NCBI GenBank assembly: GCA_022984795.1
Contig: JALIHJ010000021.1
Location: forward strand, 227,825-291,824
Reading direction: 5' to 3'
Source of the DNA: Fabrea salina
Lineage: Eukaryota; Ciliophora; Heterotrichea; Heterotrichida; Fabreidae
Length of the DNA stretch: 64,000 nt
The translations under genes and the position numbers were made by a program. Positions 15,313-64,000 of the stretch are shown piece by piece (position 1 is the first letter of the stretch; every line of letters begins with the position of its first letter). A model generated the notes under the pieces. The model did no database searches and was not told where the DNA came from. It was given only the letters and a program-made list of their open reading frames with translations.

Positions 15313-15327
15313 GTCTGCTATAAATAA

Positions 15328-15693: not shown

Positions 15694-15728
15694 TAAGTTA
15701 ACACATTCAGACTTAACTTGAGTTAATA

Positions 15729-16688
15729 ATGATTAATTTCAGACTACTGCTAAACAGGTTCTCAACCTCAAAAGCATTATGCAAAAATTTTCTGAACGAC
15801 TTAGAGTTTGCCTTGGAACAAAACTCAGAGTCACTAATCAGAGCTGTTGTGCAAGAAGCTCCTGTTTCGCAACTAGACGATGTGGGGATAAGTTTGGTCC
15901 TGTCAAGACTTTCAAAGACAAACATCAGTCCTGAGGAGTACATCCCTAAGTTCCAAAAAAGCCTTTCAGAGACTGAAATCGTTGACCCTAAAGCAGCAGC
16001 TTCATTGATATACGTCTTTTCTAGACTCAACTGCAGTTTCCCAGAGGAGTTACTCAACAAACTATTTCAAAAAGCAATTGCTGGGGAACTAGAGTCCAGG
16101 TACGTAGCCCAACTCTCAATAGGAATTTCCAAGTCTCGAATACCAGTTTCTAGCAAGTTTTCTTGTTTAAAAGAACTTGGGGAAACTATTTCTTCTAGAA
16201 TTCAAGAATTCAACGAATTAGACAGATTGTTCTTGCTTTACAGCTTTTCAAGGTTCCCTAACGAGCACTCAGAAAACATCATTAAAGAAATCATTGCTAA
16301 AAAGCCCATTTCAGAGTACAAAACTAGAGAACTGGCTTACTTAGCAGAAGCTTTAAGCAGGTTTCCTCTGGAAAAAGACCAGCTTTTGTTTTCTCAAATA
16401 GAAAACCAAGTACTCAAAACAAACGAAATTCCCAAACAAAGTCTAGTGCCTCTCCTGCACGCCTTCTCTAAACGAGGCATGGGGTCCGAAGAGCTATACA
16501 ACTTCTTCCAAAAAGAATTCGAAAGGCTTTTCAGCAACTTAGGACCAAAAAGTGTAGAAGTTTGTTTGTACTCTTTCCACAGAACTCCTTTCGTGTCTGC
16601 TGAGTTCGTCAGGAAGTTTGAGTTCTGCCAAGTTTCTGGAAAGAACCTTAGAACTATCAACTACTGGAAAAACAAACAAGTTAGTTAA
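15729..16688 (+). CDS. Probable mitochondrial helical-repeat protein
   Basis: The 319-residue protein starts with MINFRLLLNRFSTSKALCKN, which looks like a mitochondrial presequence: hydrophobic and basic, with no acids. The remainder is built of ~35-residue alpha-helical repeats with patterns such as L-A-Y-L-A-E-A-L-S-R-F and L-V-P-L-L-H-A-F-S-K-R. These recall the octotricopeptide/FAST-kinase/RAP-like repeat proteins that bind organellar RNAs. No RAP domain is obvious at the C-terminus, and the RNA-binding role is inference. The last eight bases overlap the end of the convergent TRP-like channel gene. Confidence 0.5.
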   Translation: MINFRLLLNRFSTSKALCKNFLNDLEFALEQNSESLIRAVVQEAPVSQLDDVGISLVLSRLSKTNISPEEYIPKFQKSLSETEIVDPKAAASLIYVFSRLNCSFPEELLNKLFQKAIAGELESRYVAQLSIGISKSRIPVSSKFSCLKELGETISSRIQEFNELDRLFLLYSFSRFPNEHSENIIKEIIAKKPISEYKTRELAYLAEALSRFPLEKDQLLFSQIENQVLKTNEIPKQSLVPLLHAFSKRGMGSEELYNFFQKEFERLFSNLGPKSVEVCLYSFHRTPFVSAEFVRKFEFCQVSGKNLRTINYWKNKQVS

Positions 16689-20130: not shown

Positions 20131-20829
20131 ATGGATAAACTGCCAACAGCTAAAAAGAGTTTACTTTCAAGGAACCAAAAACCGAGTAGAACTGCTTGCA
20201 AAACTAAGCTTTTCCAAGAACAACTCAGACCTAGAACTCGTCTGAACTCTGTTTTAACTCACAAAACTCTTCACAGAAAAAGTTTGAGCTCAGGCAACTT
20301 TGAAGGCCAGTGCCTGAAACTAAACCCCTACTCCAGAGTAACTACTGTAGAGGACGCAATGAACTACCTCAGTCTGCGCAAAAAAGGGTGTTCTCGCGAA
20401 CAAGCCATCAGGTTCAGTTCCAAACAACACTGCATGCACGACTCCACCAAAAAGCACGACGGACCCTCAGAGCACAGGTGTCTCAAAGTGATACCCAACC
20501 GAAAAGAGGGTCCTAACTGGGGAGGCTGGCAGCTCCACCCTTTAAAGTTCAAAAACAGTCACAACTACAATAAACAAGAAAGCCTTGACGAAATTGCTTA
20601 CGAGTACTCTCAAAAGATCTTTCAGGAGTTTTTAGAGAACTACGACCTCACTCACGGATTCGCCCAGAAAAAGCCTGAACAAGTCCACAAACTCCTTCAA
20701 CTCAATACCAGAAACAAACCCTCCTTTGAACTGTTTACTAACTACAGAGTCTGCACAAGTCCAATTGGATTCTTGGGCAAAGCCCTACCTAAAACTCCCC
20801 TTACTGCAGCTACCAGAACTTCATATTAA
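20131..20829 (+). CDS. Unrecognised basic protein
   Basis: This predicted 232-residue protein is rich in Lys, Arg, His and Ser, with no transmembrane segment. A central block (residues ~105-170) has conserved-looking Trp, Gly, His and Asn residues (NWGGWQLHP) and a helix with S-L-D-E-I-A-Y-E-Y. I do not recognise a family. Support for coding comes from its full-length open frame, A/T-rich ATG context and exact fit between neighbours: 30 nt from the divergent TRP-like gene, and a TAA that overlaps the stop of the convergent SKP1 gene by four bases (TTAA read on both strands). Confidence 0.6.
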   Translation: MDKLPTAKKSLLSRNQKPSRTACKTKLFQEQLRPRTRLNSVLTHKTLHRKSLSSGNFEGQCLKLNPYSRVTTVEDAMNYLSLRKKGCSREQAIRFSSKQHCMHDSTKKHDGPSEHRCLKVIPNRKEGPNWGGWQLHPLKFKNSHNYNKQESLDEIAYEYSQKIFQEFLENYDLTHGFAQKKPEQVHKLLQLNTRNKPSFELFTNYRVCTSPIGFLGKALPKTPLTAATRTSY

Positions 20830-21341
20830 AGGTTAAGTCTTTCATTGATGTCTTCCATAGTCCAGGGGTTCTCTTGTTTGATCCTTGCTTCTTCAGCTTC
20901 AGTGAATTCCTCTTGAATTCCGTACTTGGCTTTTAACTCCTCTATGCTTTTGCCCTTGAACAAACTAGCAGTGTAACACGCACACAAGTCAAAAACACTT
21001 TTAAAGTCCAAAAAGTTGGCAGCTTTAATCATTTCAATTAACTGATCTTCAGAAAGTGACTTAACCCAGTTTTCGTCCCAAGGATCCTCCACTGCTCCCA
21101 CGAAGTTCACAGGAACAGGCTTTTTAGGGGGCTCAGGCGGCAAGTAGCTGTGGTGCTGTGCGAACTCCAGCATTTTAGAAAGCATGTTGGAAGAAATCTG
21201 ATGAAGAGGAATAATCTCGTCAGTCATTTCTTCTTCCACTACGTTTTTGATGAGACTACTCATGTTAGCTAAGCGCGAAGTAGACTGGAACCTGTCCCCT
21301 TCTTTGGAAACTAAAACTATTTGCTTTTCCTCAAAAATCAT
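20826..21341 (-). CDS. SKP1: SKP1, core SCF ubiquitin-ligase adaptor
   Basis: The 171-residue protein follows the SKP1 layout: an N-terminal BTB/POZ-like fold (residues ~5-75, with I-P-L-H-Q-I-S-S-N-M-L), a proline-rich loop, then the dimerisation helices with W-V-K-S-L-S-E-D-Q-L-I-E-M-I-K-A-A-N-F-L and a C-terminus with NPWTMEDINERLNL. SKP1 bridges cullin-1 to F-box proteins in the cytosol and nucleus. Three F-box proteins are encoded in this window (9.3-10.5, 54.3-55.0 and 61.5-62.6 kb). The N-terminal loop lacks the long acidic insertion of animal SKP1 and the F-box-binding C-terminus is intact. The stop overlaps that of the convergent gene. Confidence 0.95.
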   Translation of the reverse strand: MIFEEKQIVLVSKEGDRFQSTSRLANMSSLIKNVVEEEMTDEIIPLHQISSNMLSKMLEFAQHHSYLPPEPPKKPVPVNFVGAVEDPWDENWVKSLSEDQLIEMIKAANFLDFKSVFDLCACYTASLFKGKSIEELKAKYGIQEEFTEAEEARIKQENPWTMEDINERLNL

Positions 21342-30300: not shown

Positions 30301-33300
30301 TCTACAGTTGTGGCTTCAACAATCAAGGGGTTTTCTTTGGCGTCGTTCATGATGTCCCTAAACTCGTTGTCAATCCCTTCGAAGGCTTTGGTTTGGTCAG
30401 GCAGTTGGCTCCTGATATCCTCCGAAGCCAGGAAAATAGTTTCTAGTCTCTTCCAGTTCCTTTGCACCTTCAGCCACACGTCCAAAGTAGCCTCTACTGC
30501 TTTGAGGGTTCCTAGCCAGTGGTTGACTCGGTCTTTGAAGTACTCTATGCTTTTGCCTGAACTCTGCATACTCATTAGTTCCATAGAGTGGGTTTCGTAC
30601 ATCTCCACTACTTCGTCCAGAGGCAGAATCACTGGACAGTCTTTGTGGATTTCAAAGGCCAGTTCTGCCACTGCCCAAGCTGCTTCGATGGCGTTGAGTT
30701 TCTTTTCAATGTTAGCTTCTTTTCCTGCCTGAGCTACTATTTCGTTAACGTCGTCTGCGTGTTCGTGCAGTTTGAGGTGCAGAAGGTCGTCTAGACTGAA
30801 AGTGGGCGAGGTGTGGTTTATTTGTTTGTGGGTGATTTGCATGAGTTGTCTCCAGTGACGAGGTTCCATGTTTGGAGAGTGCAAGTCGTTAATCAGGGGC
30901 AAAATAGTTGCCATGTTCTTCACAGTGTCTTGGAGAGTTGCGTACCCCTTCCAAGTCCTGATTTCTTTAGGAAGCACCTTCACCATGTTTTGCAGGTTTT
31001 TGTTTTGTTCAAGCAAGTCTTCAGTGTCAATTTTGTCCCAAAGCGTAGTTTTCCAGTCACTGTACTGGTTGTGCACTAGGGAAATGGCGTCCCAAAGTAC
31101 TTTTAAGAACTGGAGTTCCTGTCTGCACTCCTTCAGGGGTCTGTAGTTGTTTTTCTCAAGTTCAAAGAGTTCGTTGAGTTCGTTGTTTGCTCTGGCTTCG
31201 GACTCAATTTCAATCAGGCCTACCAAGAGTCTGTCGATGGCTTCGTAGGACTCGTTAATCACCTCGTCAGTGAGTTCTCCAAAGTTGAAGGGGCACTGTC
31301 CCAAGAACTCTTTTCGGTACTCGTCGACTTTCCTGTCGAAGTCCCAGAGTTTGCTTTTGATCTTTTTGGTTTCTTCAGTTTGGTGGGGCAGAATGATTGC
31401 TTTCACGTTGTTGACTTTCAGTTTAAGGTCCTGCCACTTAGTTTTCATGTCTTCGATTTTGGTGATGAGGTCTTCGTTCATCTGGACTCCGTGCTTCTTC
31501 AAAAGCGTGACTTTGTCTCTTAGGGGCAAAAACATGTTGTCGCAGATCTCAGTGATGGTCCTTACGTCCCTGACGTGACTCATAACTTTCATAAGTGCTT
31601 CTTGGGGAATGTCTTCTTCGTCTTCAAGCTCGATTCCTTTGCTCACAGTTTCAATGAACTTGCTTAGGTTGTTTAGAGACCCGTTCACGTTCCTCAACAA
31701 AAACCCAGTGTACACACTGATCCAGTTCTGGACTCTGGTGTTAAGTGCCACTTTCAGTGGTTCCACGTTGATTCTGAGCCAAGCAATGTCGTGTGGACTC
31801 TGCATGCCTTCAATTTTGGACTTCACGTTTTTGAGTTTGGTGATTTCTCCGTCGAAGTTGCCGAGTTCAGGCATTTTGATGCTGACTCCTTCGAAGATAG
31901 GGTGTGACTGGAGTTTTTCTAAGCGTTGTTGTTCTTCTTCTTCGTCTTCTCCTTCTCCTTTTCCTTTCTTTTCGTTTTCTCCTTGCACCAGGAAGTCTTC
32001 GAAGGTTTCGTTCAGGTCTTTTTCCCACAAGTAAGAAAACTCCATGAACTCTGACTTGAACTTTTCTGTTTGCTGCTCAATCCAGTCCAGGTGGTTCTCC
32101 ACTTTGCTCAAACAGAACCTAAACTCAAAGTCGTCGTTCACTTCAATGATGTAGTCCCCTGGAATCAAGTCAAGTCTCCCTATCAAAGTAGAAATCTTCA
32201 CAAAGTCAGCTATCCACCCGTGGACCAAGTCCCTCAGTCCACTTCTCGACATGTTGCTTTGGATTTCTGGAGTGTAAATCACTCTGGTGTCAGCTAATTC
32301 AATTCGCACGTCAAACATAGGAAGCATGTCGTTCTTTTTGATGTAAACTGGGTCGAAGTAGTCTGACAACTGGAGCAGACTCTTTTTGATAACGTTCACA
32401 AGACCTTCAATAACTAGTCCGTTGACAAAGTCTTGGTAAATCCCCCACTCAGGTGACTTCTTGGCGTTTTTGACGCATTCTCCAATGTCTTTGATGAACT
32501 TGTTGATTTCTTTGCCTCCTTTGTCGATGTCGTTGAGTTTGTTTACAATCGAAGCTTTGCTGGCTTGGTCGAAGTCGTCAGGGTTCATGGGTTTGGCTTT
32601 GCGTTTGATGAGTGGTTCTTCAGCCCACTTCTTCATGATGTCTTTGATTCCGTTTAAGTTAGACTGCATCGTTTTAACAGTTTTGTTCACGTCCTGAACC
32701 ACAATCATTGAAGCTTGGATGAACTCGTTGATGTTGGGAGACCTCCACTTCAAGTCCTTCAAACCTGGTTCTAGAGTTTGGTCCATTTTTTCGATTCTTT
32801 CTTGGAGCAAAGGCTTTTCTACCGGGTGGAGTGTTTGCTTGACTTCGTTGTACATAAAAACTATCAGGTCCAAATTCGCAACTTGAGTTCGGTAAACTTC
32901 GTTCTTGGCATAGATTTCTTGGGCACTCTCAGGAACAGGCATGTTGATCAAAAGGAAGTGCTTGACTTCTCTGAGAAGTTTCACAAGCGCAGGGTCAAAG
33001 TTGACTTTGAGCAAGCCAGTTTCTTCCTCCCTTGCAAGGAGGGGTTGTTTTAGTTTCTCGCGTCCTGACTCCTCCACCTCTGACTGCCAAACCTCGATTT
33101 TGGAGTTTTGGTACTCAGTTAAAGACTTCATCAAAGACTTGTAGAGTTTCTGAACGTCTTTGTATTCTTCCCTTTCAAAAATAGCGTCGTTGAAAGTAGA
33201 CAGTTTTTCCATGGGCTCCTTAATGCGCTCCATCAAGCCACGAGTCCAGTTGATGGCTCCTGTGACTGGGGGCATGTTTTTGGGAATGGGGGCTCTAGAG

Positions 33301-35157: not shown

Positions 35158-35616
35158 ATGATGAGTCGGGCTCAAAAACGTCTCCAGAAGGAGTTGGAAG
35201 AAATGAGAACTAATTTCGCTGATATGTTTGAAGTCCAACTCGGAAACGAAGGCCAAAACGTCATGACTTGGCTGGTAACTTTCAATGGAGCTGAGGGCAG
35301 CGTATACGAAGGAGAAAGGTACACTCTTGAGTTTAAGTTCGACCAAGATTACCCTATAGAGGCTCCTGAAGTAGTTTTCAAAGGCAACTATCCCCACCAC
35401 GAGCACGTGTATTCCAACGGGTACATCTGCCTTTCCATCTTGTATGACGACTGGTCTCCTTCCTTGAAAGTAAGTTCAGTAGTTTTAAGCATCCTTTCAA
35501 TGCTTTCGAGCGCCGCTGAAAAAGCAAGACCTCATAATGACTCCAGCTTCATTAGGTACGCAAACGGCAGGAGTCCTAAAACCTTCAACTGGGTCTTCGA
35601 AGACGAAAAGTGCTAA
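35158..35616 (+). CDS. UBE2W: Ubiquitin-conjugating enzyme E2 W
   Basis: The 152-residue UBC fold matches UBE2W closely: QKRLQKEL at the N-terminus, V-Y-E-G-E-R-Y-T-L-x-F-K-F, the active-site segment HVYSNGYICLSIL with catalytic Cys at ~91, DDWSPSLKV-x-S-V-x-L-S-I-x-S-M-L-S-S, and an N-terminal-ubiquitination-type tail with F-N-W-V-F-E-D-E-K-C. UBE2W is unusual among E2s in attaching ubiquitin to protein N-termini rather than lysines, and in lacking the canonical HPN triad; this copy has HVYSNG instead. Two ATGs stand in tandem (35158 and 35161). The stop is directly adjacent to the stop of the convergent phosphomannomutase gene, with no spacer. Confidence 0.93.
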   Translation: MMSRAQKRLQKELEEMRTNFADMFEVQLGNEGQNVMTWLVTFNGAEGSVYEGERYTLEFKFDQDYPIEAPEVVFKGNYPHHEHVYSNGYICLSILYDDWSPSLKVSSVVLSILSMLSSAAEKARPHNDSSFIRYANGRSPKTFNWVFEDEKC

Positions 35617-49179: not shown

Positions 49180-52100
49180 TTATTCATCTTCTTTGAACTC
49201 AGACATTAAGTCGTCTACAAAAGAAATGTCTTGTTTTGGAAGAGTTGCGAAGCCCTGGGACAACTCGTTCATGCTTTTAGACAAGTCCTCAAAACTAAGA
49301 AAAACCATGTCAAGGATGTTTTTGGCCTTTTTAGTGCTGATGTTGAGTCTCTTGAGTTGGGGAGTTTCTCCGGTAAGAACTTGTTTGGGTAAAGAAACTC
49401 CTTTGACTGTCACTGAACCACAAACTAAGTGGAACTTCTTCACACCCTTAAGCAACCAAGGCACAAAGGTATTTTCTAGAACTTCAAAGTACTCTTTGGT
49501 GTAGTAGTTGCGCACTGGAAACAAGATCTTCATTAAAGAAACACTGAGTGTTTGGTGCTTCTTGGAAACTAAGAACTGCATAAAGAACTCCCTAAACAGC
49601 AAGTGTCTTTGGTCCATTAGTTCTTTCTTCTCAAGCATCACTGGACTGATTGAAGTGTTGTCTTGCTCTATTAAGTCGTTGAGGAATTCCTCAAGAGTCA
49701 CTTCATCTTCCTCGAAGTTGCGCAGTATAGTCTGCACGTTCTTAATGAACCTTTCTGAAAATATAGAAACGAACTTGCTTTTGTTGTCTTCTTTGTCGTT
49801 GTACTGTTGTTTGTAAATTAAACTCCAAAAGTCCACTAGGTCCTTCAAGTAAGCGTACAGCAACACTCCAGGTCCCAGAACTACCCAGCCAAAAGCCCTT
49901 CTGTAAGAAAACACTCTGTAACTTATGTTAGGTTGAGTTTCCTCTTCTTCTTCTTCTGATGAACTTTCATCCTCGTTCTTGACTTTCTTTAAGATTTCGT
50001 GGCTGGTGGTTTTCTTAGACCCCGTTTTGCCAACAGGCACTACAGACTTAAAGTAAACTGAAGGAATGTACAGAGCCGACAAACCCATAAACAACCCCCA
50101 CTGAGGAATGACGTACAACACATAGAACACTTTGGAAAAAAAGTAGTTCCATCTCCGAGGATTCGAAGAAACCAACAAAACAGGCACAAAGACTGCTACA
50201 ATCACTGAGAGAGGTGAAGGAAGGAGTATCAAAATGCCGTAGTCTTCGTTCCACTTCCACTTGTGGTAATTCTGCACCAAAATAGCCCTGTACTCTCCGT
50301 CAACTCTTTCTGCAAGGGTTTCGTAAACGTTTGACAAAATAGCTATAAGTAAGTTCAGCAAAAGCACACTAGTCAGCAGCAAAAAGAGCGAAACCATAAG
50401 TTCTCCGTAGTAATCGTACTGAGTGAAACCCGTTATGCTGAAAGACGCTAAACCACCTCTAAACAGAGTCCTAAGGGATATTGCAAAGCTGGTGTACTCA
50501 AACCCTGCTCCTACAAAGTTGTCTCTGAACTGGGAAGTAAACACTGCTGCTCCACAAAGAAGTAAACAGAACCACAAGAAAGTGAAAGTAAACAAGTGCC
50601 TACTCATCAAGTACAACATGCGGATCAAAGGTCCTTGGCTTTTAGTGGTCAGAAGCACCGAAACAAACTTGAGCCATATAAGACACAACATAACACCGTG
50701 CATTATGGAGTTGTACTGCTTTGGAGTCAAAAAGCTCAAGAGCTTGCCTTCGCCCACGTATTCTTGGTTGAGTTCAAGCATAAGCACAAGCATCTGAGCA
50801 AACATCAAAAAGTCCAGAACTGCCCAAGAGTCCAGCATGTTTCCTCTTCCAGTTCTGAGTCCAAACACTAGGTGGAGCAGTTTTTCTATAACTATTCCAC
50901 CTATCCAAACCTGAGAAACCCTCAAAAAAGCCAAAGCTGTGGGGTCTTGGGTAACATCTTCCATCACGTCAGCTTCAGTTGCTGAGTCCACCATCAGGGT
51001 GTAGAAAAGCACAAGGAGCAAAGTTGAAACTGCCTGTGCCACAAATCTCATACTGCAGGAGTCCACTAGTTGTTCGAACTGGAACAAGTAAGGAAGTGAA
51101 GGGTCCATTCTTCCCAGGAAACTAAGTGCTTCTTCAGAATTCCCGGGGGCTTGTCCAGAAACGTAAAGGGTAGAAGCTTTGATTATTCCATAGTTCTTCC
51201 TCGAACCCACCCACAACTTACTCACTATTGCTCCAACTTCGTCTTGTTCAAGAAGTGGGTAAAACCGGTTCTCAGCAATGATTTGCAGCACTGTTCTGCT
51301 TCGAGAGTCTTCTTGCAACAGAAAGTACTCTAGTTTGTCTTCTTGCTTAATGTTTTCCTCAATTTCCTTTCCAAAGCTCACTAGAGTTTCAGCAGTGCTT
51401 ATGCATATGTTGGAGTAGTGAACGTTGACTGGAGCTAGTCGGTAAAGAAACTCTGCCAGCAGTGTCACGAAAAGAACAGGTTTGTGGGTTTTAATTAACT
51501 CGTCAGTTTTCTTAACAAAGTAATCGATGTTAGAGCACAGTTCCCTTGTTAGTTCGTAGTGCCAGTGCTCCGACTCTATGTTTGAAAGGAACTCAGCTGC
51601 GTAAATGCAGGTGCTCCCGTCATTCACTAATTTAACAATCAACTTTTGAGTTTCAAACTTTCCTAAAAACACTTTGGCTTCTTTGAACTTAAGCATTTCC
51701 ACAGCAAGTCTGTAGTACCCGTAGTTCACACAAGACTGGAACTCAGAAGGAGAGAGAGGACGCAATCGTTTATGCAGAACTTCACTGGCTAGTTCCTGCT
51801 GGTTGTTTTGCATACACACTTCCAGCACTCCTGGCTGGTCTGCTGCCCCAGGCCAGTTTATCACTCTTCGACCTTCGCTGAATTTTCTTTTTTCAAACAA
51901 AAACTTCAAAATGTACTTCACACTCAACCACTTGTTGACTACTTGTTGTTCAGAAGTGTCAACCACTTTCCCAGCTAGTTCTTTCCAAAGCACTCCTTTG
52001 TTGTTCCTTTTTTGGTGGTCTGCAGTTAGTTCGTGTTCTCCCATCCAAACACGTTTTAGAAACTCAAGGTTGTCTTGTTCAAGGGCTTTGCGGACCATAC

Positions 52101-52752
52101 TGGGATTAATAGCCCAGGGGTTCAAACTAAGTATCACTGAAGCTAGGTCATCGTCCCCTACACTCAAGGCTATGTCTAGAGCTTCTTCAACTAAGTACTT
52201 GTTTTTAATGAGTTCCTGGATGTCCTCAAACTCCCCCAAGCTGTCTCTTAACGGTCCCTTTTTGAAAAGCAGTTCCTCTGCAGAAAAGTTCCACCCCCTG
52301 TAAACCAAGTACCACAGTTCCAGTTCTGATCTTTCGGAGTAAAACTCGGCTTCTATGATGCTTTGGATAAAAAACTCGTCGTTATCCCTAATAGCTTCTA
52401 TTAAAAGGTTGGAAACTGAAGAGTACCCAAAGTTTTTCAACTCCTTTGCAAACTCAATGTGGCCTTTCTTCAGAGCTAAACTCAGGAGTTTTCCACTGCT
52501 TACAAAAACTTGGTTCTTTTCAATAAATTCAGAGTCAAGTGCTATGCTCCGGGCCAAAGGCAGTAGGTTCAGTTCGACGGCACTTAACAACTTGTGGGTT
52601 TCAGGATTCATGCTGCTTTGGTAGGCCTTTTCTAAATGGTGTTTGTCAATTGCACCTAGTTTCAAAAGCATGTTTGTTCCGAATTGGAGTCCCTTTGCAT
52701 GGGAAGTTGCGTCCACCAAACTAACAAAGTCGTTCTCCTTAGCTTCTTCCAT
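49180..52752 (-). CDS. TRP-like cation channel 2 (paralogue of the 16.7-20.1 kb gene)
   Basis: The 1,190-residue protein begins with ~560 residues of helical repeats similar to the first TRP-like protein, including a shared Y-G-I-I-K-A-S-T-L-Y segment before S1. Hydrophobic segments occur at ~570-590 (S1), ~612-632 (S2), ~643-660 (S3), ~682-702 and ~720-740 (S4/S5), a pore at ~750-772, and S6 at ~783-810 with the LLLNLLIAILSNVYE signature. Post-S6 the YGILILLPSPLS block (~838-849) is followed by two further hydrophobic stretches (~848-862 and ~875-900). An acidic Ser/Glu run lies at ~928-940. Likely role: Ca2+ or monovalent cation entry in a membrane not identified here. Confidence 0.8.
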   Translation of the reverse strand: MEEAKENDFVSLVDATSHAKGLQFGTNMLLKLGAIDKHHLEKAYQSSMNPETHKLLSAVELNLLPLARSIALDSEFIEKNQVFVSSGKLLSLALKKGHIEFAKELKNFGYSSVSNLLIEAIRDNDEFFIQSIIEAEFYSERSELELWYLVYRGWNFSAEELLFKKGPLRDSLGEFEDIQELIKNKYLVEEALDIALSVGDDDLASVILSLNPWAINPSMVRKALEQDNLEFLKRVWMGEHELTADHQKRNNKGVLWKELAGKVVDTSEQQVVNKWLSVKYILKFLFEKRKFSEGRRVINWPGAADQPGVLEVCMQNNQQELASEVLHKRLRPLSPSEFQSCVNYGYYRLAVEMLKFKEAKVFLGKFETQKLIVKLVNDGSTCIYAAEFLSNIESEHWHYELTRELCSNIDYFVKKTDELIKTHKPVLFVTLLAEFLYRLAPVNVHYSNICISTAETLVSFGKEIEENIKQEDKLEYFLLQEDSRSRTVLQIIAENRFYPLLEQDEVGAIVSKLWVGSRKNYGIIKASTLYVSGQAPGNSEEALSFLGRMDPSLPYLFQFEQLVDSCSMRFVAQAVSTLLLVLFYTLMVDSATEADVMEDVTQDPTALAFLRVSQVWIGGIVIEKLLHLVFGLRTGRGNMLDSWAVLDFLMFAQMLVLMLELNQEYVGEGKLLSFLTPKQYNSIMHGVMLCLIWLKFVSVLLTTKSQGPLIRMLYLMSRHLFTFTFLWFCLLLCGAAVFTSQFRDNFVGAGFEYTSFAISLRTLFRGGLASFSITGFTQYDYYGELMVSLFLLLTSVLLLNLLIAILSNVYETLAERVDGEYRAILVQNYHKWKWNEDYGILILLPSPLSVIVAVFVPVLLVSSNPRRWNYFFSKVFYVLYVIPQWGLFMGLSALYIPSVYFKSVVPVGKTGSKKTTSHEILKKVKNEDESSSEEEEEETQPNISYRVFSYRRAFGWVVLGPGVLLYAYLKDLVDFWSLIYKQQYNDKEDNKSKFVSIFSERFIKNVQTILRNFEEDEVTLEEFLNDLIEQDNTSISPVMLEKKELMDQRHLLFREFFMQFLVSKKHQTLSVSLMKILFPVRNYYTKEYFEVLENTFVPWLLKGVKKFHLVCGSVTVKGVSLPKQVLTGETPQLKRLNISTKKAKNILDMVFLSFEDLSKSMNELSQGFATLPKQDISFVDDLMSEFKEDE

Positions 52753-52763
52753 AGTAATTTAAT

Positions 52764-54254
52764 ATGGACATGGGAGGCAAGAACTACTTTTACCTCGACA
52801 ACATTGAGTTTGACTCTGAATTTGACAGTGGAAGTTTGGCAAAGGCTCAAAAGATTGACCAAGAGTACTGGATTTACACTTCTCGAGATGCTTCCAAAAG
52901 TTCTGCTAAGAGTTGGTTTTACTTCAGGGTCAAGTGCAGGGAACTAAGGTGCTTGCAACTCAGAATTAAGTCTTTGGGCTACCACTCAAAGATGCTGCAG
53001 GAAGGCCTCAAACCAGTTTTTAAAGACGAAGGTGGAAAATGGGGCAGAATCCCTCAGAAAGTGGGTTCTTGCAAAGGCGAACTTGGTTTGGAGTTGTTCT
53101 TTGAGCACCAAATGACTGCAAACGTAGTTTACTTTGCTTTGTACTACCCCTACTCTTACACAGACTGCCAAAACTTCCTTTGCAACTTAGAATCAGTCAG
53201 CTACCCCTTTTACTTCCGTCGGGAGAACTTAACTTCTTCGTTCGAAGGAAGAAGGTGCGACTTGCTTCTTATTTCCTCATTTGAAGACATCAAAGAAGAC
53301 CAGGACAGAATAGTTTCTGAAAACAAAAAAGCTGTAGTAGTCTCTGCAAGGGTTCATGCTGGAGAAACACCTAGTTCCTACGTTATGCAAGCAGTCATAG
53401 AATTCTTGCTTGGGAATGACCCCAGAGCTGAGGCTTTGAGGAACTACTTCGTGTTTTACATAGTGCCTATGTTGAACCCTGACGGTGTTTCAAGAGGCAA
53501 CTTGCGCCTTGATACTTTGGGCCAAGATCTAAACAGAACTTACAACTCTACTTCGCCTGAAAAATGCCCCACTATCTTTGCACTGAAGAACCTGCTTCAA
53601 GAACTGAGCCAAGAAATTTACTGCTTCATAGACCTTCACGCACACGCTAGCATCAAAGGAATATTTACCTTTGGCAACTTGATGAAGGACTTTAAACAGC
53701 AAATAGAGTCTGCGTTGTTTCCTAAGTTGATGGAACTCAACTCTCCTAACTTCCACTGGAAGCAGTGTTCTTTCAAAGACAACACAGAACAAACAGACAA
53801 GTCCAAAAACAGAGCAGGAACAGCAAGGACTTTTGGCTACTTGTGCACAGGGATCCCCAGAGTGTACACTTTAGAGTGCAACTACAATTCAGGCTTCAAA
53901 GTGAACGAAACCTACCCTTCAAACTTGGAAGAGTCTCCTTATTCCGACCACAAAAGTTATGTGTACTCCAACGGGCCTCCCTTGTACGATACTGAAATTT
54001 TCGAAGAAACTGGAAAGTCAGTTTGTGTGTCTATTTTGGACATGATTGACAAGAACCCCTTTAGTCGTCTGAAGAACAGTCCGTTCAAAGACCTGGAAAC
54101 GTTTAAAATTCACGTGGCTGAACAACTTACAGGCATTCCTCCCTTCAGGTACTACAACACTCTGAGGCACCTATGCAAAAGCAAGTATTCACTCAAAGAA
54201 ATCATCAGAGGAAAGGTCTCAGTGGTTTTGGGCAGCACGGAAAGCAGTAAATAA
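52764..54254 (+). CDS. AGBL5: Cytosolic carboxypeptidase, CCP5/AGBL5-like (tubulin deglutamylase)
   Basis: The 496-residue protein has the N-terminal beta-sandwich (~5-150, with G-S-L-A-K-A-Q-K-I and Y-P-Y-S-Y-T-D). The M14 zinc-peptidase domain follows, with H198 and E201 in HAGET, NPDGV ~239, the DLNRT arginine ~258, the third zinc-ligand histidine in DLHAH ~292 and the catalytic Glu371 in VYTLECNY. The Y-T-L-E-C-N-Y segment is characteristic of CCP5, the enzyme that removes branch-point glutamates from polyglutamylated tubulin. Compared with the CCP at 13.1-15.3 kb it has no long tail. The start codon is 11 nt from the divergent TRP-like start, and the stop is 3 nt from the next gene. Confidence 0.9.
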   Translation: MDMGGKNYFYLDNIEFDSEFDSGSLAKAQKIDQEYWIYTSRDASKSSAKSWFYFRVKCRELRCLQLRIKSLGYHSKMLQEGLKPVFKDEGGKWGRIPQKVGSCKGELGLELFFEHQMTANVVYFALYYPYSYTDCQNFLCNLESVSYPFYFRRENLTSSFEGRRCDLLLISSFEDIKEDQDRIVSENKKAVVVSARVHAGETPSSYVMQAVIEFLLGNDPRAEALRNYFVFYIVPMLNPDGVSRGNLRLDTLGQDLNRTYNSTSPEKCPTIFALKNLLQELSQEIYCFIDLHAHASIKGIFTFGNLMKDFKQQIESALFPKLMELNSPNFHWKQCSFKDNTEQTDKSKNRAGTARTFGYLCTGIPRVYTLECNYNSGFKVNETYPSNLEESPYSDHKSYVYSNGPPLYDTEIFEETGKSVCVSILDMIDKNPFSRLKNSPFKDLETFKIHVAEQLTGIPPFRYYNTLRHLCKSKYSLKEIIRGKVSVVLGSTESSK

Positions 54255-54257
54255 TAA

Positions 54258-54974
54258 ATGCAGTGTGTAATGTGGAATAAGAATATACTTAAAGAAATAT
54301 TTGAGTACTTAGAACCTAGGGACATTGCTGCCTTCAGAGGAGTTTGTAAAGACTGGCTTGACTTGTGTCAGGACAACAAAATTTGGAAAGAGGTAGTTGA
54401 AAGGGAGTTTCCTCAAGTTGTGGTGCTAGAAGACGTTAGCTGGAAAGGAGTAAAGAATGTCCACCTGTGGAAAAAAGGATACGAACAAAACGCATTTACT
54501 GTTGGTGTGGTTGGAAAAGACAGTTTGGGAATGGTTGACGAGCTCTCAAAGTTTATTTTGGGCAAAGACTTTGTTTCGTTTGCTTTTGTGTCGCCACCTT
54601 CTTTAGAAAAGGCTTGTTTTTTGTTCCCGGAAGTGCACTGCTGGCTTTGGCTAGCAGACTCTGCTGAACCTGAGTGGGAACTAAAAGTTTCTAAGAAACT
54701 AGAATCTCTAAACAACAGTGTGACTCCCCACAGTTTGGTAGTTGTGGGTGGAGACCCTTGTGATTCAAGTTTGCACGCACTTCAACACAAGCACCTTAAG
54801 TTCCTTATACTTAAAGACTGTTCCTTAAAAAGTATCCAAGACACTACTAACTCTATCCTCAGTGTTATACAAGAAACTGGAGTTAGTGCCAGAAATGAAT
54901 TCTTTGATTCAATACAATTCCAAAACACCCAATCTAAAAGCACCAACTCCAAAAAAGGCTGCAGTCTGCTTTAA
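54258..54974 (+). CDS. F-box protein fused to a Ras-like pseudo-GTPase domain with C-terminal CAAX-like motif
   Basis: This predicted protein has 238 residues (or 234 from the second ATG). Residues ~1-48 are an F-box (ILKEIFEYLEPRDIAAF, then VCKDW). Residues ~78-210 align by eye with a Ras/Rab fold: strand plus P-loop-like GKDSLGMV where the Walker Lys-Ser are Met-Val, DPCD where NKxD is expected and a KDC in place of SAK. The loss of these residues implies no normal GTP binding. The C-terminus is KKGCSLL: a Cys-Ser-Leu-Leu CAAX-type box preceded by Lys residues, suggesting geranylgeranylation and membrane attachment. It begins three bases after the carboxypeptidase stop (TAATAAATG). I know no standard family with this order. 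Confidence 0.65.
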   Translation: MQCVMWNKNILKEIFEYLEPRDIAAFRGVCKDWLDLCQDNKIWKEVVEREFPQVVVLEDVSWKGVKNVHLWKKGYEQNAFTVGVVGKDSLGMVDELSKFILGKDFVSFAFVSPPSLEKACFLFPEVHCWLWLADSAEPEWELKVSKKLESLNNSVTPHSLVVVGGDPCDSSLHALQHKHLKFLILKDCSLKSIQDTTNSILSVIQETGVSARNEFFDSIQFQNTQSKSTNSKKGCSLL

Positions 54975-57410: not shown

Positions 57411-58838
57411 CTACTTACTAACAAAACTCCTCTTCACAAAAGAGGCCCTCAGTGCAGAACTCTCAAGTTCATCAGAACCCACACCTTCTTCAAGCAATTT
57501 CTGAATTCCTAGTTTGGGGTTACTTGAATTGAGTATTCTCGTTCCCTCAACAGCATTCAACCAAACTGCAGTAACTATGCCTACAACTCCAAAACTCATA
57601 AACAACAGACTCACCCAAAAGTACCCTCCAGAACTAGAGTCGTGGATTCTGCCTACTAGCATCGGAGCTACCGCCAAACCTAAGTTTTGAGTTGCTGTCA
57701 CTACTCCAAACGCAGTTCCAACTGTCCTTGCCTCCACCACAAGTGGAACCGAAGCCCACATCACAGAAGCATAAATTGAATACCCTATCCCCAGCAGGCC
57801 TAAAGGGAACGCTGAGTAAAAGCACTCCTTACATTCGGGCATCAAAAGGTAGACAAAGTGAACCAAAAACATGAGAACTGAAGATGCTATAATCAAGTAT
57901 CCTCTTTTACCTGTTTTGTCAACTACAAATCCGAACACCGGGCAAGCAATCCCTGCAATTCCATAGGTTATGCTCATTATGTAGTCGGCTGTAGTCAAGG
58001 AAAACCCAAATCTTTCCTGAAAGAACTTCCCAGCTATGTTGTTGAAAGACATCACACAAACATACACCACCAAACAGTTGACTGCAATAAGCCAAAAGCT
58101 CAGCCCAAACCTTTTGACATCAGAAAACTTTACTTTTTCTGAAGGGTCTAGTTTCTTCTTTGCCTTTATTCCAAGTTTTGCGTCTCTGTGGCGGTCTATT
58201 AAACTTAGCAAAACTCCACACACCAAAGAAACTAAGCACACTCCTAAACCAAAAAAGAGTCCAAACACTACTGAATCTGTTAAGTGGTAAAACAGTGGCT
58301 CAGTCATATTGTTCAGTACACTCCCTAGTCTAGAAATACTTATGTTCATTCCCAAAGCCATAGCAAGTTCCTTTCCTTCAAACCAGCTAGCCACTAAGGT
58401 GCTTTGCGAAACATTCAGACTCTCTCCGCCCAAACCAAAAACTACCCTTCCTCCCAGTGCAATTCCATAAGACTTCAAAAAAACACCAAACCCAAACAAA
58501 GTCTGTCCTAAACACACAAGTCCCGAAAACACCACTATTCCTATTCTCACGCCTAACAAGTCAACTATGTACCCTCCAAACAGAGGAAAAATTATGTTTG
58601 GAAAAGAATACAACGAATAAAACAAATTGTACTTAAAACTGCTTATGTCTAGATGCTAAGTGCAAATTACTTCTTCAAGTTGGCTTTGCAGAGCAGCAGG
58701 GTTGTCGTAAACATAATAACTCCCAAAGCAAAGCAAGCATGCTAAGGATAGCATTAAATACCTCAGTTTCGACTTGCTGACGTCATACTCAGTACTATTG
58801 CTAGGTGCATGCAGTACTTCTGGCGCCTCACTATCCAT
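57411..58838 (-). CDS. MFSD1: MFSD1-like major facilitator transporter, two exons
   Basis: Removing a 15-nt intron at 58656-58670 fuses two open frames into one 470-residue protein: exon 1 gives 56 codons from the ATG at 58838, exon 2 the rest. The join reads LQSQLEE then HLDISSFKYN then the transport core. The first helix has C-F-G-S-Y-Y-V-Y-D-N-P-A-A-L, and later L-Y-S-F-P-N-I-I-F-P-L-F-G-G-Y and G-L-G-G-E-S-L, all close to MFSD1, the lysosomal dipeptide exporter. About 12 transmembrane helices are visible. An apparent Met upstream of 58838 is coded by GTG and is rejected. Part of this gene is repeated at 63.4-64.0 kb. Confidence 0.93.
57887..58498. repeat. Source copy of a segment repeated beyond the telomere
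   Basis: These 612 bases inside MFSD1 exon 2 recur in the same orientation at 63391-64000. The copies are identical except for two single-base deletions in the distal copy, in a CCC run and a TTT run. The offset is 5,504 bases at the left junction. Confidence 0.95.
58656..58670 (-). other. 15-nt spliceosomal intron in MFSD1
   Basis: On the minus strand the sequence is GTAATTTGCACTTAG. It is the same length and has the same GTA...TAG ends as the intron at 2517-2531. Retention gives an in-frame TAG after Val-Ile-Cys-Thr; removal restores the MFSD1 first extramembrane loop. Confidence 0.9.
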
Positions 58839-58967: not shown

Positions 58968-60005
58968 TTAATCAAACTTAAATAAAGTTCTGTAAAGAAC
59001 GGAGCCTACATCAAAAACCAACCCCACGGGGTTTATAGCACTCCACCACTCACCGAAGTACCCGCTCTTTTTCTCCCCCGCGCTCCATAGTCTGACATTG
59101 TTGTCATAAGACCCCGAAACAAGGTAGTTCCCCATCTTTGTTAAGCACACAGTTGCGTCACCGTAACCTCTGAATGCAACCTCTTCCTTCATCTCTTGGA
59201 CGTTCCACACTCGGATGGTAGTGTCTAGTGATCCTGAAGCCAAATAGTAGTCACTCAAATGTGTCAAACAAAAAACTGAACCAAAGTGCCCCTCCAGCAC
59301 ACCTTCTGCACGCTTCGTCTGCACATTCCAAACTCTTATAGTGCAATCACTTGACCCTGATGCCAAATAACCACCAGCTACTGCTAAGGAAAATACCCAC
59401 CCTGTATGGCCCTTGAAGGTTACTTCTTCACGCCCTGTTTCGAGGTTCCATAACTTCACAGTCTCGTCCCAAGACCCAGAAGCTAAGTACCCATCTACTT
59501 CTGCCAAGCAACTAACTGCACTCTCGTGGCCTTTAAAAACCCTTTCCTCTTGCATGGTTTCAGTGTTCCATAGCCTAATCGTAGTGTCTACTGAACCAGA
59601 AACTAGGTAGTTTCCCACTAACTTGAGGCAAGCAACAAACTCTGTGTGTCCTTCTAAAATTGCTACTGTTTTCATGCTTTCAAGGTCCCAAAGCCTTATT
59701 GTTTTGTCTTCCGAGCCCGAAGCCAGGTATCTCCCAACCATCTCTAGACAATAGACCATACCAGTGTGCCCTCTAAGAACCTGCTTTTGTGTTTTGGTCT
59801 CGATCTCCCAAAGCCTTACGGTTTTATCGAAGGATCCTGATGCTAAGTACTTTCCAGCAACTATCAAACATAAAACCACGCTTGTGTGTCCTTCCAATGT
59901 TTTGCAAGGTTCTAAGTCCTTTATCATTTCGTCGATCTCCTTCCCGCAGTCTGCTCCCCTAATAAGTGGAATTGCTAGGTCCTCTAAATTCGAGCTAAGA
60001 TCCAT
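58968..60005 (-). CDS. Seven-bladed WD40 protein
   Basis: The 345-residue protein consists of ~37 N-terminal residues, seven highly regular WD40 repeats and a ~30-residue hydrophobic C-terminal tail. Each repeat has G-H at the start, a C-L strand, a Y-L-[AV]-S-G-S turn and [LV]-W at the end. The repeats are much more alike than in most old WD40 proteins, for instance GKYLASGSFDKTVRLW, GRYLASGSEDKTIRLW and GGYLASGSSDCTIRVW, which suggests recent internal expansion. Seven repeats give one closed propeller, a protein-binding platform. No F-box or enzyme domain is seen. The tail (GLVFDVGSVLY) might anchor to membrane or a partner. The stop is 130 nt from the MFSD1 start. Confidence 0.85.
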   Translation of the reverse strand: MDLSSNLEDLAIPLIRGADCGKEIDEMIKDLEPCKTLEGHTSVVLCLIVAGKYLASGSFDKTVRLWEIETKTQKQVLRGHTGMVYCLEMVGRYLASGSEDKTIRLWDLESMKTVAILEGHTEFVACLKLVGNYLVSGSVDTTIRLWNTETMQEERVFKGHESAVSCLAEVDGYLASGSWDETVKLWNLETGREEVTFKGHTGWVFSLAVAGGYLASGSSDCTIRVWNVQTKRAEGVLEGHFGSVFCLTHLSDYYLASGSLDTTIRVWNVQEMKEEVAFRGYGDATVCLTKMGNYLVSGSYDNNVRLWSAGEKKSGYFGEWWSAINPVGLVFDVGSVLYRTLFKFD

Positions 60006-61514: not shown

Positions 61515-62552
61515 ATGGAACCTAGGCTGATTGTAAGTGGAAGTCAGGATAAGACTGTCAGACTTTGGAGTAAACCAAAGAAACTATTCACCTTTAGAGA
61601 ATTGGGTAACTTAAGACCCATTCTCGAGGTGTTTAAGTTCCTGAGTCCTGAAGAGGTCATGGGAATTGCAAGAGTCAACAAGCAATTCTATGAAGCCTCT
61701 TTCCACTCCGAAGTACTGAAACCTGCATTCAGACAAACTAAGGTTCTTGAAGGCCATACTGATTGTATCTGGTCAGTTTCTGTGCCTGAGAGGAAAGGGA
61801 TACTAGTGTCTGCTAGTGATGATTCCACCATTCGATTGTGGAGTCTAGCTACTGGACAACTAACCCAAGTGCTTAAGGGGCATAGTAGTTGGGTATTGTC
61901 TGTGGCCATTTCTAGTGATGGGAAGTGGATTGTGTCGGGAAGTGAAGACAAAACACTTAGAGTGTGGAGTCTAGCTTCTGGACTAACCACTCAAGTACTA
62001 ACAGGCCATAGTTATGGTGTTAACTCAGTGGCCATTTCTAGCAAGGACCAATACATTGTTTCTTGTGGTTATGACAATACACTTAGGGTGTGGAGTCTAA
62101 CTACTGGAGAAGTGATTAAAGTCCTTCAAGGCCATAGCGGTATGGCCAATTCAGTGGCCATTTCAAAGACTGACGATTATATTGTCTCCGGGGGTTATGA
62201 CTGCACTGTTAGAGTGTGGAGTCTAGCTTCTGGAGACCTGATTAGGGTGCTGCAAGGACATGGTGGTAGAGTCTGGTCAGTGGCTATTTCAAGTGACGAG
62301 CAGTTCATAGTCTCAGGAAGTGGAGACAAAACCATCAGAGTGTGGAGTCTCACTTCCGGAGAAACTATTCAAGTACTCAGAGGCCACAGTCGAGGAGTAC
62401 TTTCAGTCAACCTATCAAGTGATGACAAGTACTTAGTGTCTGGAGGTGGCTATGGAGACTACTCAGTGAGAGTTTGGGACCTCTCCACAGGTCAACAGAC
62501 TCAAGAACTACAAGGCCATACTCATAATGTGTGGTCAGTTAACTTAATTTAA
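61515..62552 (+). CDS. F-box/WD40 protein with circularly closed propeller
   Basis: The 345-residue protein begins with half a WD40 blade (RLIVSGSQDKTVRLW, ~4-18). It then has an F-box-like helical insert (~28-62: LGNLRPILEVFKFLSPEEVM, then R-V-N-K-Q-F-Y), followed by six full WD40 repeats and finally a half repeat (LQGHTHNVWSVNLI) that would complete blade seven with the N-terminal strand. Repeats carry G-H, W-S-V or V-S-V-A-I-S, S-G-[SG] and R-V-W. The F-box would bind SKP1 and the propeller a substrate, as in FBXW ubiquitin-ligase receptors. The gene is subtelomeric, and His codons are mostly CAT, unlike genes to the left. Confidence 0.8.
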   Translation: MEPRLIVSGSQDKTVRLWSKPKKLFTFRELGNLRPILEVFKFLSPEEVMGIARVNKQFYEASFHSEVLKPAFRQTKVLEGHTDCIWSVSVPERKGILVSASDDSTIRLWSLATGQLTQVLKGHSSWVLSVAISSDGKWIVSGSEDKTLRVWSLASGLTTQVLTGHSYGVNSVAISSKDQYIVSCGYDNTLRVWSLTTGEVIKVLQGHSGMANSVAISKTDDYIVSGGYDCTVRVWSLASGDLIRVLQGHGGRVWSVAISSDEQFIVSGSGDKTIRVWSLTSGETIQVLRGHSRGVLSVNLSSDDKYLVSGGGYGDYSVRVWDLSTGQQTQELQGHTHNVWSVNLI

Positions 62553-62912
62553 TTATTGAATTCTTGATTAATTTGATTGGTAGTTCTTGATGCATTTCTA
62601 CATGTTCTTCATCTCTACTTAGAGTTCTTGCTTAAGTATTATTCTTGACTAGTCTTTATTCTGCTTACTCTAAGTGTTACTGACTACTTAAGTACTAACC
62701 AGTTCTACTTACACAGTGCTTATGACACTCTGTTACTAGTGATTACTTAGTGATTTATTGAACTAAGTACTGTGTTTATTCTACAATTAGTTGATGTATC
62801 AACTCTTGGTGTTAGGGTATTCTAACTCTGTGATTACTAAGTGTGTTTCTGAGTTAATGTTCTTGTTAACTACTCTTAGTTATTGTCTATTCAGTTATTA
62901 GGCGGGGTTAAG
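62553..62912. other. AT-rich subtelomeric spacer
   Basis: No convincing gene is seen in these 360 bases. Short recurring words such as ACTTAGT, CTTAAGTA, AAGTACT and GTTACT, and the near-duplicate GATTACTTAGTGAT, give it a degenerate-repeat look. One isolated telomere unit TGTTAGGG lies at 62810-62817, and a GGCGGGGTTAAG stretch immediately precedes the telomere array. Confidence 0.7.
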
Positions 62913-63390
62913 TTAGGGTGTTAGGGTGTTAGGGTGTTAGGGTGTTAGGGTGTTAGGGTGTTAGGGTGTTAGGGTGTTAGGGTGTTAGGGTGTTAGGGTG
63001 TTAGGGTGTTAGGGTGTTAGGGTGTTAGGGTGTTAGGGTGTTAGGGTGTTAGGGGGTGTTAGGGTGTTAGGGTGTTAGGGTGTTAGGGTGTTAGGGTGTT
63101 AGGGTGTTAGGGTGTTAGGGTGTTAGGGGGTGTTAGGGTGTTAGGGTGTTAGGGTGTTAGGGTGTTAGGGTGTTAGGGTGTTAGGGTGTTAGGGTGTTAG
63201 GGTGTTAGGGTGTTAGGGTGTTAGGGTGTTAGGGTGTTAGGGGTGTTAGGGTGTTAGGGTGTTAGGGTGTTAGGGTGTTAGGTGGTGTTAGGGTGTTAGG
63301 GTGTTAGGGTGTTAGTTGGTGTTAGGGTGTTAGGGTGTTAGGGTGTTAGGGTGTTAGGGTGTTAGGGTGTTAGGGTGTTAGGGTGTGTTA
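62913..63390 (+). repeat. Telomeric repeat array, unit TGTTAGGG
   Basis: The array is 478 bases, about 59 units, with the G-rich strand reading left to right, as expected for a right-hand chromosome end. Most units are exact. A few carry an extra G (around 63051, 63121 and 63240), one has TTAGGTGGTG (~63280) and one TTAGTTGGTG (~63313). The unit is the reverse complement of CCCTAACA, known from heterotrich ciliates. DNA nevertheless continues to the right of the array. Confidence 0.97.
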
Positions 63391-64000
63391 CTATAATCAA
63401 GTATCCTCTTTTACCTGTTTTGTCAACTACAAATCCGAACACCGGGCAAGCAATCCCTGCAATTCCATAGGTTATGCTCATTATGTAGTCGGCTGTAGTC
63501 AAGGAAAACCCAAATCTTTCCTGAAAGAACTTCCCAGCTATGTTGTTGAAAGACATCACACAAACATACACCACCAAACAGTTGACTGCAATAAGCCAAA
63601 AGCTCAGCCCAAACCTTTTGACATCAGAAAACTTTACTTTTTCTGAAGGGTCTAGTTTCTTCTTTGCCTTTATTCCAAGTTTTGCGTCTCTGTGGCGGTC
63701 TATTAAACTTAGCAAAACTCCACACACCAAAGAAACTAAGCACACTCCTAAACCAAAAAAGAGTCCAAACACTACTGAATCTGTTAAGTGGTAAAACAGT
63801 GGCTCAGTCATATTGTTCAGTACACTCCTAGTCTAGAAATACTTATGTTCATTCCCAAAGCCATAGCAAGTTCCTTCCTTCAAACCAGCTAGCCACTAAG
63901 GTGCTTTGCGAAACATTCAGACTCTCTCCGCCCAAACCAAAAACTACCCTTCCTCCCAGTGCAATTCCATAAGACTTCAAAAAAACACCAAACCCAAACA
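63391..64000 (-). pseudogene. Truncated second copy of MFSD1 exon 2, frame broken
   Basis: These 610 bases repeat 57887-58498 and run to the window edge. The copy lacks the MFSD1 C-terminus, because the telomere array takes its place, and reading toward the N-terminus is broken by two one-base deletions near 63827 and 63875, both in short homopolymers. No substitution separates the copies. The minus-strand frame reads from the MFSD1 sequence straight into telomere repeat. This could be a real terminal rearrangement or an assembly artefact with uncorrected read errors. Confidence 0.9.

What the first reader, a model, noticed from the sequence alone, without database searches (positions are those of the whole stretch)
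54258..54974. F-box fused to a prenylated Ras-like pseudo-GTPase
The N-terminal F-box is followed by a domain with the order of Ras motifs, but the P-loop Lys/Ser, NKxD Asn/Lys and SAK residues are all replaced (GKDSLGMV, DPCD, KDC). The protein still ends in a CAAX-type CSLL after basic residues. This would put an SCF substrate receptor on a membrane using a dead GTPase as the binding module. Some F-box proteins (FBXL2, FBXL20) carry CAAX boxes, but I know of no F-box/pseudo-GTPase/CAAX order.
Basis: partly seen in the sequence, partly recalled or inferred. Interest (0 to 1): 0.75.

Follow-up and report, generated by a model that had tools for sequence, protein, structure and literature searches.

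The report
Ciliate F-box protein with CaaX-like tail
A small protein gene, probably from a ciliate, joins a part that recruits a protein-tagging (ubiquitin) machine to a tail that looks made for a fatty membrane anchor; whether its middle part is really a dead Ras-type switch could not be shown.

Summary
The ORF at 54258-54974 (+, 238 aa) looks like a real gene. Its F-box is significant (Pfam E 2.9e-9). It ends in KKGCSLL, the only CaaX-type end among 40 predicted window proteins. The quoted GKDSLGMV, DPCD and KDC stretches are present. The Ras identification is not established: Pfam lists no Ras-superfamily hit, alignment to a Ras consensus is at chance (189 of 394 decoy windows and 280 of 1000 shuffles score as high), and no relative was found. 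Both structure models are poor (mean pLDDT 39 and 43); the best Foldseek matches are other alpha/beta folds. A degenerate G fold is neither shown nor refuted. Best reading: an SCF substrate receptor held at a membrane by a prenylated tail, with a degenerate alpha/beta domain as binding module. F-box/ARF-GTPase combinations, prenylated FBXL2, RhoBTB3 and Rab40 are in print, so the combination would be a new variant, not a new kind. The source is probably a heterotrich-like ciliate.

The parts
54258..54974 (+). ORF, 238 aa, F-box / alpha-beta domain / CaaX-type end, stop TAA
   Evidence: coding score positive in frame in 7 of 7 segments, best of six frames in 6 of 7
54285..54398 (+). F-box, residues 10-47
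   Evidence: PF12937 E 2.9e-9, PF00646 E 8.9e-9; phmmer to FBXW11 and FBXW1A chains, best E 0.0002
54492..54878 (+). Predicted alpha/beta domain, residues 79-207, family unknown; possible degenerate G domain
   Evidence: secondary structure of two low-confidence AF2 models; no family hit above cut-off
54513..54536 (+). GKDSLGMV, residues 86-93: P-loop-like spacing Gx4G without Lys-Ser/Thr
   Evidence: sequence; chance-level similarity
54753..54764 (+). DPCD, residues 166-169: at the place of NKxD in the local alignment to the Ras consensus
   Evidence: ungapped 26-residue alignment, score 30, not above decoys
54813..54821 (+). KDC, residues 186-188: proposed SAK equivalent
   Evidence: sequence only
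54879..54971 (+). Polar 31-residue tail (6 S, 3 N, 3 Q, 3 K) ending SKKGCSLL
54960..54971 (+). CSLL, CaaX-type C-terminus (X = Leu, geranylgeranyl type)
   Evidence: rule for X = Leu from PMC9141697 passages
20829..21341 (-). Skp1 homologue in the same window, the expected F-box partner
   Evidence: Pfam Skp1 E 9.4e-15, Skp1_POZ E 7.6e-12

Best explanation
The gene encodes a substrate receptor of an SCF (Skp1-Cul1-F-box) ubiquitin ligase. Residues 10-47 bind Skp1 (inferred from a significant F-box). Residues of about 79-207 form a small alpha/beta domain with no active site that I recognise, which I take to be the protein-binding (substrate) module. A probably flexible 31-residue tail carries a CSLL box that is probably geranylgeranylated, so the ligase would act at a membrane. 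Shown here: the ORF, the F-box, the CaaX-type end, and a Skp1 gene in the same window. Inferred: Skp1 binding, substrate binding, prenylation and membrane location. The alpha/beta domain may descend from a small GTPase (I give about 0.3), but this is not demonstrated.
For: F-box E 2.9e-9, above the Pfam cut-off. PDB F-box chains matched by the same stretch. Coding score positive in frame up to the C-terminus. Only CaaX-type end among 40 predicted proteins, 0.11 expected. Polar Lys-containing tail before the Cys. No GT-AG interval of 14-20 nt lies after 54882, that is in the last 29 codons, so a tiny intron would not remove the CaaX end. Skp1 and an E2 (35158-35613) are encoded in the window. 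Prenylated F-box proteins exist: FBXL2 is geranylgeranylated and so placed on membranes, dependent on its C-terminal CVIL (PMC9141697 passages).
Against: A single sequence: no orthologue was found, so neither the tail Cys nor the domain could be tested for conservation. The usual Leu-Pro at the start of an F-box (recalled) is not evident. The C-terminal domain has no family hit above cut-off. A CaaX word is expected by chance in about 1 of 360 proteins (0.00275). In one of 7 segments an antisense frame has the better coding score. No expression data.
Confidence: 0.5

Rival explanations
1. One reading: residues 78-210 are a Ras-family pseudo-GTPase fused behind an F-box, keeping the small-GTPase hypervariable tail and CaaX box. 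It would be the CUL1 counterpart of Rab40 (CUL5) and RhoBTB3 (CUL3).
For: Hydrophobic-G-x4-G after a first strand; a 26-residue ungapped local alignment of the Ras consensus (through NKCD) with residues ending in DPCD; strand-KDC-long helix, then a polar tail and CaaX, is the order of the C-terminal end of small GTPases (recalled); the loose combined pattern matches only this protein of 40, but was written post hoc. Foldseek of the fragment lists IRGQ at rank 31 and KRas at rank 32. Known pseudoGTPases have lost G motifs, and one paper counts even CheY receivers as a GTPase fold with degraded motifs (PMC5593906 passages), so the receiver-like matches do not exclude this reading.
Against: Similarity to the Ras consensus at chance: 189 of 394 decoy windows and 280 of 1000 shuffles as high for residues 75-212; 200 of 371 and 166 of 500 for residues 75-238. 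Global alignment is below average (291 of 371 decoys and 353 of 500 shuffles as high). The window's Arf as yardstick does no better (local 250 of 371 and 391 of 500). No Pfam Ras/Arf/Roc hit listed. About 130 residues rather than 160-170, and at least one strand and one helix too few in the models. Better Foldseek matches to other folds.
Confidence: 0.28
2. The middle domain is another three-layer alpha/beta fold (flavodoxin/receiver-like, five beta-alpha units), degenerate and non-enzymatic, serving as substrate-binding module of an F-box protein.
For: Element order and length of the models; among the 50 Foldseek rows shown the best include a 2-hydroxyisobutyryl-CoA mutase chain, a designed Rossmann protein, CpaE, TadZ and CheY-type receivers, with TMq up to 0.55.
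Against: Model mean pLDDT 43, no match at E<=0.001. The fragment model lacks the third strand seen in the full model. Alignment to a receiver consensus is also at chance (222 of 394 decoys, 443 of 1000 shuffles). Pfam lists no receiver hit. Poor three-layer alpha/beta models attract such matches easily.
Confidence: 0.4
3. An ordinary cytosolic F-box protein with a lineage-specific C-terminal domain; CSLL is a chance C-terminus and is not prenylated.
For: F-box proteins often carry unrecognised C-terminal regions (recalled). Among 40 proteins a CaaX-type end is expected 0.11 times by chance, which is not negligible. No conservation evidence is available.
Against: The end is preceded by KKG and a polar, probably flexible tail, as in prenylated proteins (comparison recalled).
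Confidence: 0.3

Closest known systems
Rab40 family (Rab GTPase + SOCS box, CRL5 receptor)
   Same: A small-GTPase domain built into a cullin-RING ligase receptor (PMC10509765 abstract and passages)
   Different: Rab40 has a SOCS box C-terminal to a recognisable Rab domain and uses Cullin5; here an F-box precedes an unrecognised domain. Prenylation of Rab40 is recalled: 'prenyl' occurs 0 times in that paper.
RhoBTB3 (atypical Rho + two BTB, CUL3 receptor, CaaX)
   Same: Atypical GTPase domain, cullin adaptor domain and C-terminal CaaX in one protein (PMC4931677 passages)
   Different: Adaptor is BTB/CUL3 and lies behind the GTPase; the GTPase part is recognisable and, in that paper's model, binds ATP; here the F-box comes first and there is no GTPase signal
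FBXL2 (prenylated F-box protein)
   Same: F-box protein with a CaaX-Leu C-terminus (CVIL), SCF component at cell membranes (PMC9141697 passages)
   Different: FBXL2 carries leucine-rich repeats; none found here
ARF-family GTPases combined with an F-box
   Same: F-box and a Ras-superfamily domain in one protein, as a lineage-specific innovation (PMC8358228 section 13 read whole)
   Different: Those keep a recognisable ARF domain; the paper left out extremely divergent sequences with disrupted motifs. Taxon, domain order and lipid signal of its F-box example not seen (figure not held)
Motif-less pseudoGTPases (p190RhoGAP pG1/pG2, CENP-M, fungal dynein LIC)
   Same: Would share a G fold without nucleotide binding (PMC5593906 passages)
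   Different: None is described in those passages as a ligase receptor; the G fold of pG1 is solved there, here it is not shown

Membership tests
F-box proteins (SCF receptors) | F-box domain by curated profile | tested here: met
   PF12937 37 bits (cut-off 24.3), PF00646 35.4 bits (cut-off 20.5)
F-box proteins (SCF receptors) | Binding to Skp1/Cul1 and substrate ubiquitination | not testable with these tools
   A Skp1 gene is present in the window; binding needs an experiment
Ras superfamily / pseudoGTPases | Significant sequence similarity to Ras, Rho, Rab, Arf or Roc profiles | tested here: not met
   No such hit listed with the limit at E 10 (filters drop most matches above about 0.1); chance-level alignment; the window's own Arf scores 125 against the same Ras consensus
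Ras superfamily / pseudoGTPases | Conserved G1, G3, G4, G5 residues | tested here: not met
   GKDSLGMV for GxxxxGKS/T, DPCD for NKxD, KDC for SAK, no DxxG between residues 94 and 165 (read by eye). A pseudoGTPase need not have them
Ras superfamily / pseudoGTPases | G-domain fold | tested here: inconclusive
   AF2 without alignment, mean pLDDT 39.4 and 43.0; Foldseek best matches other folds, none at E<=0.001
CaaX-prenylated proteins | C-terminal Cys-a-a-X | tested here: met
   CSLL then stop TAA; only such end of 40
CaaX-prenylated proteins | Conservation of the Cys in orthologues; lipid attachment | not testable with these tools
   No orthologue in the collections searched
Receiver / flavodoxin-like domains | Profile match or consensus similarity | tested here: not met
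   No such profile hit listed; 222 of 394 decoys and 443 of 1000 shuffles as high
RhoBTB | BTB domains behind a Rho domain | tested here: not met
   At E<=1 Pfam lists two F-box models and a sub-threshold DRTGG only
Rab40 | SOCS box behind a Rab domain | tested here: not met
   No SOCS-box or Ras hit listed

The most novel reading that the evidence does not exclude
A geranylgeranylated SCF receptor whose substrate-binding module is a small GTPase that lost every G motif: the CUL1-type counterpart of Rab40 (CUL5) and RhoBTB3 (CUL3), showing that small GTPases were recruited as cullin-ligase receptors independently, here in a heterotrich-like ciliate with a dead G domain.
Probability: 0.22. Interest if true: 0.65.

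Novelty: new variant of a known kind. Interest (0 to 1): 0.38.

Why it matters
If the tail is prenylated, this is a compact (238 aa) membrane-tethered SCF receptor in a ciliate, a simple system in which to ask how ubiquitin ligases are addressed to membranes. If the middle domain is also a degenerate small GTPase, it would add a CUL1 example to the Rab40 and RhoBTB cases and suggest repeated recruitment of GTPase folds as ligase receptors. If neither holds, it is one more lineage-specific F-box protein.

Tried and rejected
Searching the own genome: none is held. Relatives in GTDB genome contigs and IMG/VR viral contigs with the whole protein and with the middle fragment: 30, 8 and 32 pattern matches respectively, none confirmed by tblastn. 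These scans look for six 8-residue words of one sequence, and the collections are bacterial, archaeal and viral, so the misses say little. A genome-contig scan with the window's Arf, meant to find prokaryotic Ras-like sequences for a profile, also found nothing (23 pattern matches, none confirmed). No paralogue among 100 window ORFs of 60 aa or more.

Profile searches: Pfam and NCBIfam gave nothing for the middle domain except Pfam DRTGG at E 0.04-0.1, below its cut-off. It covers 39 residues and 38 of 105 model positions; I regard it as chance. PDB phmmer of residues 74-238 gave only three plastocyanin sequences at E 1.2-1.4, also regarded as chance.

Structure: full-length model mean pLDDT 39.4, fragment 74-212 mean pLDDT 43.0. 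The 50 rows shown for the full model are mostly TIM-barrel and unrelated entries at E 0.04 or worse. They include 9rkj_H, an entry with KRAS and VHL, at rank 13 (which molecule chain H is, is not stated) and the GTPase Toc34 at rank 49. The fragment gave generic alpha/beta folds. I do not read homology from either.

A stop-codon read-through fusion with the gene upstream was considered. The carboxypeptidase ORF 52764-54254 is in the same frame and two TAA codons stand between. Rejected: no sign of stop reassignment, as ORFs such as 21360-35012 (4551 aa) run without internal stops, and readings past the two TGA ends are short (5 and 25 codons).

Full report
The observation. The window holds a 238-codon ORF at 54258-54974 on the + strand. 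It is preceded by two in-frame TAA codons, the first of which closes the carboxypeptidase gene 52764-54254. Codon-usage scores trained on other window genes of 150 aa or more (this one left out) are positive in this frame in 7 of 7 segments. The frame is the best of six in 6 of 7; in 54573-54677 one antisense frame scores higher (0.26 against 0.14). The score per codon for the whole gene is 0.23; the 40 predicted genes range from 0.06 to 0.38. So the gene is real as far as sequence can tell.

F-box. Pfam F-box-like scores 37 bits, E 2.9e-9, residues 10-47; F-box scores 35.4 bits. phmmer against PDB sequences finds FBXW11 and FBXW1A (beta-TrCP) chains at E 0.0002-0.001 through the same region. 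I scanned 37 of the 40 predicted proteins with Pfam and the tables show an F-box in this one only (for two WD40 proteins only the best 25 families were shown). The three not scanned are the ORFs at 7-300, 21360-35012 and 63365-63811. A Skp1 homologue (20829-21341, minus strand) and an E2 (35158-35613) lie in the same window.

C-terminus. The last 31 residues are polar (6 S, 3 N, 3 Q, 3 K) and end SKKGCSLL. From window residue frequencies a CaaX-type word at the end has probability 0.00275 per protein, 0.11 expected in 40. One was seen; the only other protein with Cys at that place ends CEEK. With Leu last, geranylgeranylation is the expected type (PMC9141697 passages). Blepharisma, a heterotrich, has introns of mostly 15 and 16 bp (PMC9942806 passages), so I looked for GT-AG intervals of 14-20 nt. 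Four of 15 nt exist in the gene, but the last interval of any of these lengths ends at 54882, so none touches the last 29 codons. One of 15 nt at 54267 could change the first residues.

The middle domain. Pfam lists no Ras, Arf, Rho or Roc hit for residues 74-238 with the limit at E 10; HMMER's filters drop most matches above about 0.1. PDB phmmer lists only plastocyanins. I then scored residues 75-212 against a recalled Ras-family consensus. The best local alignment has score 30 and pairs the consensus up to NKCD with the window residues up to DPCD without gaps. But 189 of 394 windows from other window proteins, and 280 of 1000 shuffles, score as high. Residues 75-238 gave 200 of 371 and 166 of 500; global alignment gave 291 of 371 and 353 of 500; with the window's Arf as yardstick the local figures were 250 of 371 and 391 of 500. 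As a positive control that Arf scores 125 against the Ras consensus. A receiver-domain consensus does no better for residues 75-212: 222 of 394 decoys and 443 of 1000 shuffles. A loose pattern combining the three stretches matched this protein alone of 40, but I wrote it after seeing the sequence. Close versions of its three parts match 9, 2 and 37 of 40 proteins, so it gives no probability.

Structure. Two AlphaFold2 runs without alignment gave mean pLDDT 39.4 (full length) and 43.0 (residues 74-212), with no residue at 70 or more in either. In the full model the region reads b80-84, a89-100, b106-110, a113-122, b127-130, a139-151, b160-163, b180-184, a190-207. The fragment model agrees but has no strand at 127-130. 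The full model is one strand and one helix short of the Ras order (recalled) and is close to a five-unit beta-alpha fold with one helix missing. Foldseek of the fragment gave 1281 matches at E<=10 and none at E<=0.001; 50 rows were shown. The best are a 2-hydroxyisobutyryl-CoA mutase chain (TMq 0.51; its cobalamin-binding subunit, recalled) and a designed Rossmann protein. CpaE domains reach TMq 0.52-0.55 and CheY-like proteins follow; IRGQ is at rank 31 (0.39) and KRas at rank 32 (0.35). The full model gave noise. At this confidence the comparison cannot decide between a degenerate G fold and another alpha/beta fold, and leans slightly to the latter. [quoted passage not shown]

Where the window comes from. 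An array of 58 copies of the 8-base unit GTTAGGGT, a permutation of TGTTAGGG, lies at 62912-63386. Blepharisma telomeres are permutations of CCCTAACA, the reverse complement (PMC9942806 passages). Together with gaps between predicted genes that are mostly under 40 bases and no sign of stop reassignment, this points to a heterotrich-like ciliate with the standard code. Blepharisma stoltei itself reads UGA as Trp and is 66% AT, unlike this window (GC 0.40-0.47), so it is not that species. The genus remains unknown.

Mechanism. The best-supported reading is an SCF substrate receptor. Its F-box binds Skp1, the alpha/beta domain binds a target, and a geranylgeranyl group on Cys235 holds the ligase at a membrane. 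Only the sequence features are shown; binding, lipid and location are inferred. The small-GTPase origin of the middle domain is possible (order strand-KDC-helix-polar tail-CaaX) but not demonstrated.

What is known. FBXL2 is an F-box protein geranylgeranylated and placed on membranes through a C-terminal CVIL (PMC9141697 passages). RhoBTB3 unites an atypical GTPase domain, a CUL3 adaptor and CaaX (PMC4931677 passages). Rab40 unites a Rab domain and a CUL5 adaptor (PMC10509765 abstract and passages). ARF-family GTPases combined with an F-box are reported among lineage-specific architectures (PMC8358228 section 13 read whole). PseudoGTPases without nucleotide binding are a described class (PMC5593906 passages). 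AnkB of Legionella pneumophila is a further precedent for F-box plus CaaX; its F-box is stated in a search listing (PMC2790608), its CaaX is recalled. I found no paper describing F-box, pseudo-GTPase and CaaX in one protein, but I saw only listings: 0 papers, 20 listed of 2,736, 5 of 5, 12 of 19, 12 of 16 and 3 of 3, all open-licence full texts.

Verdict. A real F-box gene with a credible CaaX end and an unassigned alpha/beta domain. The pseudo-GTPase claim is unproven and could be settled quickly with orthologues from heterotrich genomes.

Noticed in passing
62912-63386 and 63391-64000: An array of the heterotrich telomere unit (TGTTAGGG on the + strand) is followed four bases later by a copy of 57887-58498 that runs to the window's end and is identical except for two missing single bases, at 58323 and 58372. 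A chromosome end inside the contig followed by repeated sequence suggests a chimeric assembly end, or a telomere array left inside a rearranged copy.
   Followed up: partly
52764-54257: The carboxypeptidase (M14) ORF ends TAATAA and the F-box ORF starts at the next base in the same frame, so the F-box gene's promoter probably lies inside the upstream gene, or the two share a transcript.
   Followed up: partly
13072-20100 and 49183-54254: Two cytosolic-carboxypeptidase-like genes and two genes with Ion_trans/polycystin-channel hits lie as two near-neighbour pairs in the window, perhaps an old segmental duplication.
   Followed up: no
58971-60005 and 61515-62549: Two WD40-repeat genes in opposite orientation near the telomere array, with the weakest coding scores of the 40 predicted genes (0.07 and 0.06).
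   Followed up: no
12161-12697: A recognisable Arf-family GTPase; the best PDB matches are named Arl8 and Arl5.
   Followed up: partly
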